Shown piece after piece: positions 37,418-47,995 of a DNA stretch of 64,000 nucleotides (its first letter is position 1; each line of letters begins with the position of its first letter). A program made the translations under genes and the position numbers. The notes beneath the pieces were generated by a model. The model was not told the origin of the DNA. It made no database searches and worked only from the letters and a program-made list of their open reading frames with translations. Source of the DNA: Vulgatibacter incomptus (GTDB lineage: Bacteria > Myxococcota > Myxococcia > Myxococcales > Vulgatibacteraceae); assembly GCF_001263175.1 (NCBI RefSeq), contig NZ_CP012332.1:3473501-3537500 (forward strand). Reading direction: 5' to 3'.

Positions 37418-37843
37418 ATGAAAACAGGATCAAGAATCCTCTTTTTCTCCGCGGTTGCGATTGGTGGCCTCGTGGCCGCGTTTAACATTGCGTTGTACAC
37501 TCTGCGCTCAATGGTGGACTCTGTGTGCGAGAACGAAGAGATCTACCGTGTCGCGAACCCTGGGCAGACGAGGGAATACGTCCTCTATTTGCGCGATTGC
37601 GGTGCGATTGCCGCGACCAGAGGACACGTTTCCATCGTCCCGTACGGAGAGGCCCTGGACGTCCGCAGGGGTTACGTGGTCGACCTTGGCCGACCCGTCC
37701 GCGGAAGCGTGATGCAAGGCGTTTCGATTCAGTGGCGTGACGATCACAATCTCGCGGTCTGCACCAAGCGGATGACGACGGGTGAAGAGCTCGACGACCG
37801 GGTCGAAGACGTGACGGTCACTTTTTCCTCCTGCGAAGAATAG
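37418..37843 (+). CDS. small membrane-anchored or exported protein, unknown
   Basis: A 141-residue protein with one hydrophobic N-terminal segment (RILFFSAVAIGGLVAAFNIA). The rest is soluble, beta-rich and has four cysteines (VCENEE, LRDCGA, VCTKRM, SSCEE) that could form two disulfides outside the cytoplasm. It resembles small DUF-type periplasmic proteins but no family is named with confidence. Base composition is slightly less G+C-rich than neighbours. Confidence 0.65.
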   Translation: MKTGSRILFFSAVAIGGLVAAFNIALYTLRSMVDSVCENEEIYRVANPGQTREYVLYLRDCGAIAATRGHVSIVPYGEALDVRRGYVVDLGRPVRGSVMQGVSIQWRDDHNLAVCTKRMTTGEELDDRVEDVTVTFSSCEE

Positions 37844-38041: not shown

Positions 38042-39289
38042 ATGCAGTTGCGTTCCCTTATGTTCGTAGCGACCGGCGTGTCTGCCCTGGTCACTGCCTG
38101 CTCCGATCCTGCCCCCGAGGTGCTCTCGCCCGTCGCCCACTCGGGCGAATACGGCGATCTATCGGGAACGCCGGATCTAGCCCCCTACGTGAAGTCCTCC
38201 GAGCTCCACGCGCTCGCACGGTCTGGATCGTACGACGACCTCTCGGGGACCCCGGACCTCAGCGTCTACGCGACACGCGAGGAGCTTCCTGCGGTCGCGC
38301 TGTCCGGTGAGTACGCCGATCTGCAGGGCACCCCCGACCTCTCGGTCTATGCGCCCGCCGAGAGCTTCTCCCTGGTCGCCTTCTCCGGCCGTTACGCAGA
38401 TCTTACCGGCACGCCCGACCTCTCCGCCGTCGCCCTCTCCGGAAACTATGCGGATCTGGGCGGCACCCCCGACTTGTCCGTCTACGCAAGCGTTGCGGGA
38501 CTCTCGCCGGTGGCGAGCTCGGGCCACTACGACGATCTCGGCGGCAGGCCCTGGACAGGTGATGCCTCGCAGATCCGCACGAGCGCCGGCGTGACCTTCG
38601 GAGAGACGGCACGCGAGCCGCTCAACGTCCTTGTCGCCGACTACGGGAGAAGCGAGATCGATCAAGCCAGCGACCAGGACGGGGGCGCCTACGGCCCATA
38701 CGGCTCCCATTGGCAGTCGTTCACCAACACGGTCGAGGGAGTCCTCGACGGGATCGACGTCGACCGATGGTGGGATCCCGGCGTCGATTCCGGCTACACG
38801 CTCAACGTCTACGAGGGCGACGGGACGGGCGGGATGCGCATCTATACGGAGTCCGAAGTCTCGGTCTCCAACGGCTTCCACACGGTCACGCTCTCCAACC
38901 CGGTGCGGCTCGAGGCATACAAGAAGTACACCTGGGAGCTCGTGAATCCGTCGCCGTTCACTCTCGTCGGCTACAACTGGTCGACCTACACGGGAGGACG
39001 CGGCGGCACGAACATCCCCGAGATGTCGTACCACTTCTCCACCCGGATGCGGCAGGACCTCGGGACGTCGCGCCCGGCCCTCGCCGTCACGGCCCTCGGC
39101 AAGGTGGGCGTGGGTACCTCTACGCCGACCGCCGCCCTGGACGTTGCGGGCGACCTGCGCGTGCGCGCGTCGTCGTCGCCCGCCTCCAACGACCCCTGTA
39201 GCCCGGGCCAGATCTCGTGGGACGCCGGCTACGTCTACGTCTGCGTCCAGGCCAACACCTGGAAGCGCGCGGCGCTCTCTTCGTACTGA
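38042..39289 (+). CDS. lipoprotein with tail-fibre-like SGxYxDLxGTPDL repeats
   Basis: A 415-residue protein. Lipobox VTAC ends at Cys20. From residue 31 to about 180 there are seven imperfect repeats with SG-x-Y-x-D-L-x-G-T-P-D-L, the same rhythm as SGSYNDLTNKP repeats in phage tail fibres and bacterial adhesins. A 110-residue DUF4082-like or jelly-roll part follows (SHWQSFTNTVEGVLDGIDVD), then VGVGTSTPTAALDVAGDL, a motif of trimeric tail-fibre heads. This suggests a trimeric, lipid-anchored surface fibre. A strong hairpin follows the stop. Confidence 0.78.
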   Translation: MQLRSLMFVATGVSALVTACSDPAPEVLSPVAHSGEYGDLSGTPDLAPYVKSSELHALARSGSYDDLSGTPDLSVYATREELPAVALSGEYADLQGTPDLSVYAPAESFSLVAFSGRYADLTGTPDLSAVALSGNYADLGGTPDLSVYASVAGLSPVASSGHYDDLGGRPWTGDASQIRTSAGVTFGETAREPLNVLVADYGRSEIDQASDQDGGAYGPYGSHWQSFTNTVEGVLDGIDVDRWWDPGVDSGYTLNVYEGDGTGGMRIYTESEVSVSNGFHTVTLSNPVRLEAYKKYTWELVNPSPFTLVGYNWSTYTGGRGGTNIPEMSYHFSTRMRQDLGTSRPALAVTALGKVGVGTSTPTAALDVAGDLRVRASSSPASNDPCSPGQISWDAGYVYVCVQANTWKRAALSSY

Positions 39290-42901: not shown

Positions 42902-43843
42902 TCAACCCCGGTCGAGGACACCAGCGCGGTAATCGGCGAAAGCCTGCCGGATCTCCGCCTCCGTGTTCATCACGAACGGGCCGTACTGCACGATCGGCTC
43001 GTTGAGCGGCTTGCCGGCTGCGACGAGGATCTCGCTACGCTGGGATGGCGAGCGTACCTCGAGGCTACGGCCCGAGCCGAGGAGGGCGATCGCGCCCTCG
43101 GGGACCGGCGTCGCGTCGGGGCCGATCTCGACGCCGCCGCTGCCGACGAAGACGAAGGCGGTGTGACCCTCGGGCGTGTCGATGGAGAAGGGGCGATCGT
43201 CTTCCAGGACCGCCGTGAAGAGCAGGGGCTGCGTCGGCCGCTCGCGGACCGGGCCCACGAGCCCGTCGAGCTCGCCCGAGATCACGGAGACGCGTGACCC
43301 TGCCCGTCCGAGCGTCCCCTGGGCGAGCTGCGCGGGACCGAGGTCCTGGTAGAACTGCGGGCCCATCTTCTCCCGCGCCGGCAGGTTCACCCACAGCTGG
43401 AAGCCCGACATCAGGCCCTTCTCCTGCTCGGGCATCTCCGAGTGGATGATGCCGCGGCCGGCGGTCATCCACTGGGCACCGCCTCCTCCGATCACGCCGT
43501 GGTTCCCGCGGCTGTCGCGATGGCGCATCCGGCCCTCGAGCATGACCGTCACGGTCTCGAAGCCGCGGTGGGGGTGGTCGGGGAAGCCGCGGATGTAGGC
43601 GTCCGGATCGTCCGAGTGGAAGCGGTCGAGGAGGAGGAAGGGGTCGAGGTTGCGCAGCGCGGGCTGGCCGATCACGCGGGTCAGCCGCACTCCATCGCCG
43701 TCCGAAGTGGGGATCCCGTACTGGATCCGCTCGACGCGGCGCCCGGAGCGAGGAAGGAAGACAGGGGACTTCTGGCAGCCAGCCACTGCGAAAGCGGCGG
43801 CGGCTGCTGATCCGGCGAGGAAGCGGCGGCGGTTCTCGTCCAT
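42902..43843 (-). CDS. exported (Tat-lipoprotein) pirin family protein
   Basis: A 313-residue bicupin. Metal ligands are in DHPHRGFETVT (two His) and IHSEMPE (His, Glu), and the C-terminal cupin includes EPIVQYGPFVMNTEAEI. Pirins normally are cytoplasmic or nuclear quercetinase-like proteins. Here the N terminus NRRRFLAGSAAAAAFAVAGC joins a twin-arginine motif to a lipobox (Cys23), so the folded, metal-loaded protein is probably exported by Tat and lipid-anchored. Confidence 0.9.
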   Translation of the reverse strand: MDENRRRFLAGSAAAAAFAVAGCQKSPVFLPRSGRRVERIQYGIPTSDGDGVRLTRVIGQPALRNLDPFLLLDRFHSDDPDAYIRGFPDHPHRGFETVTVMLEGRMRHRDSRGNHGVIGGGGAQWMTAGRGIIHSEMPEQEKGLMSGFQLWVNLPAREKMGPQFYQDLGPAQLAQGTLGRAGSRVSVISGELDGLVGPVRERPTQPLLFTAVLEDDRPFSIDTPEGHTAFVFVGSGGVEIGPDATPVPEGAIALLGSGRSLEVRSPSQRSEILVAAGKPLNEPIVQYGPFVMNTEAEIRQAFADYRAGVLDRG

Positions 43844-45844: not shown

Positions 45845-47995
45845 TTAGCGGTACCTACCGCAGGGAATCGTGTCCTGGCGGAGCGCGAAGCCGTTGAGCT
45901 CATCGTCGTCCGCCCAGATGAACGTCTTGTACCCGTTCACGCACTCGGACTCCGGCGCCATGGCGATCCCCTCGTTGTTGGTGTTGGGCATCGTGGAGGG
46001 CCGAGCGAAGCCCGCCAGGATCCGGAAGGCCCCGTGGGTCGCCGAGCCCGGGAGCGTGTCGACGTCGAGGAGGGTCAGCTTGTTCCCGCAGGTGTTGTCG
46101 CACTGCGCGTACAGGTAACCGTTCTCCCGATCGAAGGAGAGGTCCATCACCGCCGGGAAGCCGCTGTCGATCGTCGCGACGCGCTGGTAGCCGTTCGTCA
46201 CGTGGTCGAAGGCGTAGGCGTAGATGATGCCGTTCGCCTCGATGCCCACGAAGAAGATCCCGGTGCCGTGGTTGGGATAGCGGTCGGGGTCGTAGGCGAG
46301 GCCGGTGCTCTCGTCGATGAAGCCGCGGCTCACGAGGAAGCTATCGGGGATCCAGGCGACGCCCTCGGCGCCGAGGTTCGCGCCGAGCACCGGGAGGTCG
46401 CTCGTCAGGTTCCAGTCGTTGGTCGCGACGAGGGTCGTTCCGGAAGCGTCGAGGTCGTAGCGGAGCACGGCCGGGCGGCTCACGTTCTTGTTGTCGTTGT
46501 CCCGCTCCGTAGCGACGTAGATCGCCGACGAGTCGAGCTCGGCCCTGGTGATTCCCTCGGAGTCCGGGCCACCGAGGCCGTTCATGTAGGTGATCGTCTT
46601 GCCCGCGCCCCAGCCGTTCGTCGTGGTGTTCTCCCAGGTGCTTCCGTTCCAGACGAGGCGGTAGAGCATCGACGGGCCGTTCTGGATCCCCCACAGGATG
46701 GCCGGCGAGCTCGAGGTCGCCGGCTCGTAGAACAGGCCGCTGAGGTTCGTGCCGAACTGGTGGAAGGTGCTGACGACCCGAACCTGATCGGTCCCTGGCC
46801 ATGCCGCGAACGCGATGCCGCCGGAGCCACCCGCGCCGCCCGTACCGCCCGTACCGCCCGTTCCTCCGGTGCCACCGGTGCCGCCGCTACCTCCGGTGCC
46901 GCCGGTTCCACCGCAGTCGTTCGCCGCGCCCTTGGTCACACGCGCGGTGTTCGCCCAAGCACCGGTCCCGTTCGGGCAGCGACCCCAGCTCGGATTACCG
47001 TGAGCCGTCCAGTAATAGGAATCGACGAGGTGCATCGCGGGATCGAAGATCCGCACCGCGTCCTTGGCGCCGAGCCCGAATCCGAACGCCGCCTCTTCGA
47101 GCACGTAGTAGCCGCCGGGAGGAATCACCGTGCCCGCGGGGATGGCGTAGTGGTGCGCGTCATCGTCGTCCTTGAACACCCAGCCCGAGACGTCCGCCGG
47201 GAACGCGCTCGCGTTGTAGAGCTCCGCCCAGTCGCCGGGCACGCCGTTCGTCGACACCGCCTCGTTGAGGCGAACGTCCGGCAGAACGCAGGTGACCCAC
47301 ACCGAAGTCGACTCGGTGCAATCGCCATCCGAGACGGTAAGCGAGACGGCAACGATACCGGACGAAGCGCACTTGAACGAAGCGCTCGCCGACGTGCCGT
47401 TCGAGATTGCGCCGGAGGTCGCGGTCCAGGCGTAGGTGATCGGAGACGGCGCGAGATCTCCGTCCGATGCGGTGGCCGAAAGCGCCACCGGCTGACCGAC
47501 GATCGCCTCCACGGGCATCACGCTCAGGAAGTCGATCACGGGACAGAGATTGAGCGTGCCATTCACCAACACGCTGCCCGTACGCGGAGCCATCCGGCAG
47601 TTCAACGAGATCCTCACCGAGGTCGTCGACCCGGCCTCGATGTCGAAGATGGCGGAGCCGACGCAGTCGATACCGGTTCCGTAGGCCTCGAGCGTGATCA
47701 CGTAGCCCGCGCCGGCCGGAATGCCGCCGATTCGAGCGGACACGAGGTCCCTCCCGACCACGCCGATCGATCCGCGATCCCGGAATCCATTGCCTTCGAT
47801 GGTGTACTGGACCGTCGAGATCTCGACGTCACCGAACTGCAGCTCGAAGCCCAGGGTGCCGAAGGCGGTCTCGCCCTCCGGTCCGGTGTGAGCTCGAGAC
47901 GATCCTCCGCAAGCCTGGAGGCCGAGCCCGCCGCCGAGCGCTGCGACGACGAGCAACGCCGACGCGAGGCGCGCAATCCACGTCTTTCCGTTCAT
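45845..47995 (-). CDS. lamin-tail-domain lipoprotein with PKD-like and esterase/phytase-like parts
   Basis: A 716-residue lipoprotein; lipobox GLQAC, Cys29. A PKD-like Ig fold follows (VGQPVALSATASDGDLAPSP), then a lamin-tail domain (VRLNEAVSTNGVPGDWAELY, GYYVLEEAAFGFGLGA), a Gly-Thr linker, and an esterase-like or phytase-like beta-propeller segment (LGGPDSEGITRAELDSSAIY, DSGFPAVMDLSFDRENGYLY). Multi-domain extracellular proteins of this kind are common in myxobacteria. Enzymatic activity is not certain. Confidence 0.8.
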   Translation of the reverse strand: MNGKTWIARLASALLVVAALGGGLGLQACGGSSRAHTGPEGETAFGTLGFELQFGDVEISTVQYTIEGNGFRDRGSIGVVGRDLVSARIGGIPAGAGYVITLEAYGTGIDCVGSAIFDIEAGSTTSVRISLNCRMAPRTGSVLVNGTLNLCPVIDFLSVMPVEAIVGQPVALSATASDGDLAPSPITYAWTATSGAISNGTSASASFKCASSGIVAVSLTVSDGDCTESTSVWVTCVLPDVRLNEAVSTNGVPGDWAELYNASAFPADVSGWVFKDDDDAHHYAIPAGTVIPPGGYYVLEEAAFGFGLGAKDAVRIFDPAMHLVDSYYWTAHGNPSWGRCPNGTGAWANTARVTKGAANDCGGTGGTGGSGGTGGTGGTGGTGGTGGAGGSGGIAFAAWPGTDQVRVVSTFHQFGTNLSGLFYEPATSSSPAILWGIQNGPSMLYRLVWNGSTWENTTTNGWGAGKTITYMNGLGGPDSEGITRAELDSSAIYVATERDNDNKNVSRPAVLRYDLDASGTTLVATNDWNLTSDLPVLGANLGAEGVAWIPDSFLVSRGFIDESTGLAYDPDRYPNHGTGIFFVGIEANGIIYAYAFDHVTNGYQRVATIDSGFPAVMDLSFDRENGYLYAQCDNTCGNKLTLLDVDTLPGSATHGAFRILAGFARPSTMPNTNNEGIAMAPESECVNGYKTFIWADDDELNGFALRQDTIPCGRYR
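46817..46914 (-). repeat. GGT-type low-complexity repeat coding a Gly-Thr linker
   Basis: About ten imperfect nine-base units coding GGTGGTGG-like linker between the lamin-tail and propeller domains. Length likely varies between strains by slippage. Confidence 0.75.

What the first reader, a model, noticed from the sequence alone, without database searches (positions are those of the whole stretch)
38042..39289. Lipid-anchored tail-fibre-like protein without phage genes nearby
Seven SGxYxDLxGTPDL repeats and a VGVGTSTPTAALDV motif are typical of phage fibre shafts and heads, but the protein has a lipobox and no structural phage gene adjoins it. This suggests a surface fibre borrowed from a phage-like repeat.
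Basis: partly seen in the sequence, partly recalled or inferred. Interest (0 to 1): 0.5.

Follow-up and report, generated by a model that had tools for sequence, protein, structure and literature searches.

The report
Lipid-anchored protein with phage-fibre modules
A soil myxobacterium carries a lone gene for a lipid-tagged protein whose shaft and closing cap match bacteriophage tail fibres, probably a small sticky fibre on the cell surface, and its cap shows a cysteine pattern that seems to mark bacterial as opposed to virus-borne versions of this module.

Summary
The ORF (38042-39289, 415 aa) is real and lipoprotein-like (lipobox VTAC, Cys20). It has six, not seven, SGxYxDLxGxP repeats; five carry the full GTPDL. 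Genome length equals that listed for Vulgatibacter incomptus.

It is a mosaic. The shaft (periods 27 and 18) matches jumbo Pseudomonas phage proteins, 46% over 125 aa. A middle beta-domain has no phage match and only sub-threshold family hits. The VGVGTSTPTAALDV collar matches Bdellovibrio MAT fibre structures by profile. The last 41 residues are an end-cap that Pfam lacks; it lies at the stop codon in 41 of 41 pattern-found viral contigs and also ends bacterial proteins with export leaders.

Among 86 distinct caps, a Cys about 15 residues before the invariant Cys occurs in 20 of 24 from bacterial genomes and 3 of 62 from viral sources. The window protein has this pair. Pfam finds no phage structural gene in 20 nearby ORFs, and the genome has no sheath or portal match.

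Best reading: a lipid-anchored trimeric adhesive fibre, not a virion part. MAT-like, but without the MAT N-terminal domain. Trimerisation, exposure and ligand are inferred. New variant of a known kind.

The parts
38042..39289 (+). whole gene, 415 aa; no second match to it in the genome at E <= 0.01
38042..38101 (+). lipoprotein signal peptide; lipobox VTAC (38090-38101), lipidated Cys20 expected
   Evidence: read from sequence
38141..38221 (+). shaft repeat 1, 27 aa
38222..38302 (+). shaft repeat 2, 27 aa
38303..38383 (+). shaft repeat 3, 27 aa
38384..38437 (+). shaft repeat 4, short form of 18 aa
38438..38518 (+). shaft repeat 5, 27 aa
38519..38557 (+). shaft repeat 6, degenerate core (SGHYDDLGGRPWT)
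38609..39061 (+). middle beta-domain (about aa 190-340), candidate ligand-binding head; sub-threshold DUF4082 / Lectin_like
   Evidence: limits approximate
39062..39163 (+). beta-helix collar with capping-loop motif VGVGTSTPTAAL (39104-39139)
   Evidence: limits approximate
39164..39286 (+). C-terminal end-cap, 41 aa, with Cys386 (39197-39199) and Cys401 (39242-39244)

Best explanation
A lipid-anchored, homotrimeric adhesive fibre of the cell envelope, built from phage-fibre parts. Shown by sequence: a lipoprotein leader, a shaft of six phage-fibre-type repeats, a middle beta-domain, a MAT/phage-type beta-helix collar, and a C-terminal cap. Inferred: Sec export, lipidation at Cys20 and transfer to the outer membrane put the N-terminus at the membrane; three chains wind into a shaft that lifts the middle domain from the surface; the collar and cap close and register the trimer at the distal end, the cap being held by a Cys386-Cys401 disulphide suited to the oxidising outside; the middle domain and/or collar binds a ligand, most likely a glycan of a neighbouring cell, its own matrix or a substratum. 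It is not part of a virion or of a resident prophage.
For: Lipobox. Shaft homology and shared 27/18 spacings with phage Callisto and with a 1,177-aa open frame of another Myxococcota genome. Collar profile hits Bdellovibrio MAT structures, best 8OND E 1.9e-11. Cap is at the stop codon in 41 of 41 viral contigs found by pattern, and 12 of 12 cap members match PHROG tail family 17312. The same beta-domain+collar+cap follows a collagen-like shaft in L016, i.e. shaft exchange. Synonymous change between repeat cores is near saturation (pS 0.75) with low amino-acid change (pN 0.17). The protein's only cysteines are 20, 386 and 401, and the 386/401 spacing is the one that marks caps from bacterial genomes (20 of 24) against viral sources (3 of 62). 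Genome G192 has two further proteins, lipobox by eye, that end in this cap.
Against: No trimer model; the full-length monomer model failed. The middle domain has no significant family. A lipoprotein may face the periplasm; surface exposure is not shown. The repeat cores were picked by their shared residues, which lowers pN by choice: over whole 27-aa units pN/pS is 0.48 and in the 14-aa linkers 0.84. With the single sequence the collar's PDB match is weak (E 0.014-0.028); only profiles make it strong. The gene is rare: of 195 Myxococcota genomes including its own, the whole C-terminal half is matched in 2, the shaft in 2, the cap in 4. The Cys association is not corrected for relatedness, and one lipobox protein with the cap (L176) lacks the first Cys.
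Confidence: 0.58

Rival explanations
1. A periplasm-facing outer- or inner-membrane lipoprotein: same trimer, but inside the envelope, as a spacer or scaffold and not an adhesin.
For: The lipobox shows anchoring, not topology; no export gene was recognised among the 20 nearby ORFs scanned.
Against: Shaft, collar and cap relatives include proteins that reach outwards: phage tail proteins and MAT fibres, reported on the predator surface in PMC10769870 (passages read).
Confidence: 0.2
2. A MAT-type prey-recognition fibre as in Bdellovibrio, used for predation.
For: Collar homology to four MAT proteins in the PDB (five chain sequences, E 1.9e-11 to 0.028); mosaic architecture with exchangeable shafts.
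Against: No N-terminal ~130-aa MAT domain: only 13 residues separate Cys20 from the first repeat (definition in PMC10769870, section read). One copy found in the genome. A passage of PMC11509652 excepts Vulgatibacteraceae from predation.
Confidence: 0.1
3. A remnant of a lost prophage: a stranded tail fibre, drifting.
For: Phage homologues of shaft and cap; sporadic distribution; whole-repeat pN/pS of 0.48 is only moderately low and linkers are near 0.84.
Against: Lipoprotein leader; intact frame with GC3 0.85; cap with the cysteine pair of bacterial, not viral, caps; no phage match for the middle domain at E <= 1; no phage structural genes found nearby and no sheath or portal match in the genome. 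Selection on the repeats may in part predate arrival, so it counts little here.
Confidence: 0.09

Closest known systems
Fibre-like tail proteins of Pseudomonas jumbo phages (Callisto, genus Wroclawvirus; also PA5oct and MIJ3)
   Same: Shaft repeats 46% identical over 125 aa; 6 of 17 spacings in Callisto are 27 or 18.
   Different: 2,236 aa, phage-encoded, other spacings too; its C-terminal 250 aa as printed show no collar-cap of this type.
Mosaic adhesive trimer (MAT) fibres of Bdellovibrio bacteriovorus (PMC10769870)
   Same: Signal peptide, long shaft, beta-helix collar with the capping-loop motif, exchangeable parts.
   Different: MATs share a ~130-aa N-terminal domain that is absent here; here a lipid anchor, a different shaft, a 41-aa cap, and one copy, not 21.
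C-terminal ends of cyanophage structural and Klebsiella phage tail proteins (PHROG 17312, 21017, 37350)
   Same: The end-cap, at the protein's C-terminus in the cases examined.
   Different: Viral caps mostly lack the Cys386 equivalent (3 of 62 viral or phage caps have it).
L016, MAG Deltaproteobacteria SZAS-2: collagen-like shaft + same C-terminal half
   Same: Beta-domain, collar and cap, 37% identical over aa 38-231 of the C-terminal query.
   Different: Collagen shaft (Pfam E 6.4e-28); N-terminus cut off by the contig end.

Membership tests
Phage tail fibre | Sequence homology to virion fibre proteins | tested here: met
   shaft: 13 of 50,697 phage records at E <= 1e-5; cap region: 121 records at E <= 0.01
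Phage tail fibre | Encoded with phage structural genes | tested here: not met
   20 nearby ORFs in Pfam, 10 of them in PHROGs; no sheath or portal match in the genome
Phage tail fibre | Part of a virion | not testable with these tools
   export leader and lipobox speak against it
MAT superfamily | Beta-helix with capping-loop motif | tested here: met
   motif aa 355-366; profile match to PDB 8OND E 1.9e-11, 8OML 6.4e-6; sequence level only
MAT superfamily | Conserved ~130-aa beta-rich domain right after the signal peptide (PMC10769870) | tested here: not met
   13 residues between Cys20 and the first repeat at aa 34
MAT superfamily | Homotrimer displayed on the cell surface | not testable with these tools
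   no multimer prediction; monomer model poor
S74 intramolecular-chaperone fibres | C-terminal S74 peptidase domain | tested here: not met
   Pfam scan at E <= 10 lists only DUF4082; 49 residues remain after the capping loop
YadA-type trimeric autotransporters | C-terminal outer-membrane barrel anchor | tested here: not met
   no such Pfam hit; the C-terminus is the cap
Bacterial lipoprotein | Leader with lipobox [LVI][ASTVI][GAS]C near residue 20 | tested here: met
   VTAC at aa 17-20
Bacterial lipoprotein | Lipidation and outer-membrane location | not testable with these tools
   inference from the leader only

The most novel reading that the evidence does not exclude
The collar-cap is a portable, still unnamed C-terminal closing module that moves between virions and exported bacterial proteins, and a cysteine pair (Cys at -15 and 0) is the mark of its use outside the cell: phages, which assemble in a reducing cytoplasm, mostly do without it, and exported forms lock it with a disulphide. 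Myxococcota have more than once lipid-anchored phage receptor-binding-type proteins by this route (this gene, and two tailspike-like genes of G192).
Probability: 0.33. Interest if true: 0.6.

Novelty: new variant of a known kind. Interest (0 to 1): 0.45.

Why it matters
Bdellovibrio MAT fibres showed that bacteria can use phage-like fibres as adhesins. Here is a different build: a lipid anchor, a jumbo-phage-type shaft and a short cap, in a myxobacterial family that one paper excepts from predation (PMC11509652, passage). If the cap's cysteine pattern holds, it gives a sequence mark that separates bacterial exported from virion-borne fibres, useful for annotating orphan 'tail fibre' genes and for asking how often phage adhesion parts are re-used by cells.

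Tried and rejected
Full-length AlphaFold model from 11 sequences: mean pLDDT 44.9, no use for the shaft or middle domain; its fold matches (best Z 4.5, rows of unrelated proteins) were not used. C-terminal half in the viral collection with two patterns from the middle domain: 81 matches, none confirmed. Shaft in the viral collection: 2 loci confirmed of 11 matches; L034's frame is broken and L035 was not followed beyond its printed translation. Plasmids: no match at E <= 1e-3. Weak coagulation factor V hit to the shaft, E 0.14: taken as a repeat-composition match. Second cap hit in the genome, E 0.31, lies in an ORF that by eye is an oxidoreductase-like enzyme: rejected. Cap against PDB sequences: nothing below E 1.1; its weak fold likeness to pacifastins and chitinase C (Z 2.7 or less) is a lead only. 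YadA-type and S74-type fibres: no Pfam support. Promoter scan: none; terminator scan: one site against 0.6 expected. Literature (listings only): no paper holds the string AANTWKR; one search returned none; others (4 papers; 10 of 11 listed; 8 of 21 listed) show nothing on this protein as far as titles and abstract starts go, apart from the MAT paper.

Repeat-number variation between strains could not be tested: I searched one genome of the species, and the only other genome of its family among the 60 (G001) has no match.

Full report
What is there. The ORF at 38042-39289 codes for 415 aa. Its GC3 (0.85) lies within that of nearby ORFs. The genome is one contig of 4,350,553 bases, exactly the size listed for Vulgatibacter incomptus GCF_001263175.1 in a table of PMC11509652 (passages read); I take it to be that species. 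No second match to the protein was found in the genome.

Anatomy. A leader with lipobox VTAC puts Cys20 at the mature N-terminus. Six repeats start at aa 34, 61, 88, 115, 133 and 160, spaced 27, 27, 27, 18 and 27; five carry the full SGxYxDLxGTPDL, the sixth is degenerate. None of 20,000 shuffles holds even one copy. Between the 13-residue cores of the five full repeats, synonymous change is near saturation (pooled pS 0.75) and amino-acid change low (pN 0.17, ratio 0.22). The cores were chosen by their shared residues, so this ratio is low in part by choice: over whole 27-aa units of four repeats it is 0.48, and in the 14-aa linkers 0.84. The repeats are old, and constraint sits in the cores; part of it may predate arrival in this genome. 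A middle beta-domain (about aa 190-340) gives only sub-threshold hits, DUF4082 E 0.004 and Lectin_like E 0.066, and no phage match at E <= 1. Then comes a collar with VGVGTSTPTAAL (aa 355-366) and a cap of 41 aa that ends the protein. The only cysteines are 20, 386 and 401.

Shaft. In 50,697 phage records the shaft hits 13: 11 records of Pseudomonas jumbo phages (40-41% identity) and 2 records of one cyanophage, under features called hypothetical, structural, tail, minor tail or long tail fibre protein, or baseplate wedge/tail pin. Against phage Callisto's 2,236-aa protein the best stretch is 46% over 125 aa. With a looser expression that protein has 18 repeat cores; 6 of the 17 spacings are 27 or 18, the rest differ. 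Among 195 Myxococcota genomes including this one, 2 hold the shaft at E <= 1e-5; the other, G075, has a 1,177-aa open frame in which 20 cores (looser expression) stand at 27 or 18 residues in 19 of 19 spacings.

Collar. A profile of collar and cap (24 rows) finds, among PDB chains, five sequences of four Bdellovibrio MAT proteins: 8OND 1.9e-11, 8OML 6.4e-6, 8ON4 0.0023, 8OJN 0.0042, 8OL4 0.028 (proteins named). The window protein alone reaches only E 0.014-0.028. In PMC10769870 (sections 10-12 and passages read) the motif is the capping loop of the trimeric beta-helix. AlphaFold gives collar and cap alone pLDDT 80; the PDB matches are led by MAT fibres, 8OND Z 4.6 (rmsd 12.2, 80 residues) and 8ONC Z 3.0 (rmsd 2.4, 36 residues, 39% identity), modest values. 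Viral structure matches are weak too (5 at E <= 0.001, best 1.7e-4, TM 0.43) but include phage structural and tail fibre proteins.

Cap. None of 12 members meets a Pfam family at E <= 1. All 12 match PHROG 17312 (tail protein) and 21017; for the window's member the matches run to positions 792 of 792 and 140 of 143. In phages, 121 records match the C-terminal 66 aa at E <= 0.01; the 30 rows listed all run to the last query residue, and in the two I fetched the stop follows. An exact pattern for YVCVAANTWKR found 41 viral contigs, and in 41 of 41 the frame stops within 6-8 residues. In the genome-contig scan 18 loci were confirmed of 71 matches, many with export leaders by eye. In the wider set, 156 of 157 caps lie at a stop codon. 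So the cap is a C-terminal module shared by virion proteins and bacterial proteins with export leaders.

Cysteine pattern. In 86 distinct caps (157 ORFs, duplicates merged; one further ORF dropped), the invariant Cys is joined by a Cys 13-18 residues earlier ('-15') in 23, or 7-11 residues earlier ('-9') in 18, never both (Fisher p 0.002). The -15 form is in 20 of 24 caps from bacterial genomes and 3 of 62 from viral or phage sources (p 9e-13). Two of the 24 also occur on viral-collection contigs; counted there, the figures are 18 of 22 and 5 of 64 (p 1e-10). A crude leader test marks 12 of 23 with the -15 Cys and 4 of 63 without; many frames are cut at the contig end. Limits: no correction for relatedness; the query that confirmed hits itself has the -15 Cys (the same query confirmed the viral scan, and one search used none); viral-collection contigs may hold host genes. 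Of the four bacterial-genome exceptions three look like phage or prophage fibres by eye (L018, L019, L029); the fourth (L158, read whole as L176) is a lipobox protein by eye and a true exception. The window protein has the -15 form.

Mosaic and anchoring. L016 carries the same C-terminal half (37% identity) behind a collagen-like shaft; the same sequence lies in G023, of the window's order. Genome G192 has two proteins with, by eye, a lipobox, a short collagen-like stretch and a pectate-lyase-like body, both ending in this cap (Pfam PF12708 E 6.4e-11 for L177, the only one scanned). So of the 5 cap proteins found in 195 Myxococcota genomes three have a lipobox (two by eye), one (G078) has a signal-peptide-like leader by eye, and one is cut off.

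Context. The 20 nearby ORFs scanned include a DUF6157 protein, an unassigned small membrane-type protein, Ada, OsmC, pirin, a phosphorylase and ABC transporters. No phage sheath or portal match is in the genome; other phage genes were not searched genome-wide.

Function. I commit to a lipid-anchored trimeric adhesive fibre (0.58). Leader, shaft, collar and cap homology are shown; lipidation, trimerisation, surface display, the disulphide and the ligand are inferred. A predation role is less likely: the MAT N-terminal domain is absent, and a passage of PMC11509652 excepts Vulgatibacteraceae from predation; another paper says the species fits neither usual feeding category (PMC12397197, passage). 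A prophage remnant is unlikely given the leader, the cap's cysteines and the absence of other phage genes among those searched. It works like a MAT fibre but is not a MAT by the tested definition. Direction of transfer between phages and bacteria is open.

Noticed in passing
42902-43843 (-): A pirin-family protein with a twin-arginine leader and lipobox (RRRFLAGSAAAAAFAVAGC by eye), i.e. an apparently exported, lipid-anchored pirin.
   Followed up: no
45845-47995 (-): A large lipoprotein-like protein (leader with QACGG by eye) with lamin-tail and weak PKD domains.
   Followed up: partly
37418-37843 (+): Small membrane-type protein just upstream, no Pfam or PHROG hit, GC3 0.70 against mostly 0.8-0.9 around it; possibly foreign.
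   Followed up: partly
L176 and L177 (genome G192): Two lipobox proteins (by eye) with pectate-lyase-like, tailspike-like bodies ending in the same cap; one lacks the -15 cysteine.
   Followed up: partly
L010 and L179 (genome G075): A 1,177-aa open frame with 20 shaft repeats spaced 27 or 18 residues and, before them, a beta-rich-looking N-terminal region that by eye and recall resembles leader-proximal domains of other bacterial fibres.
   Followed up: partly
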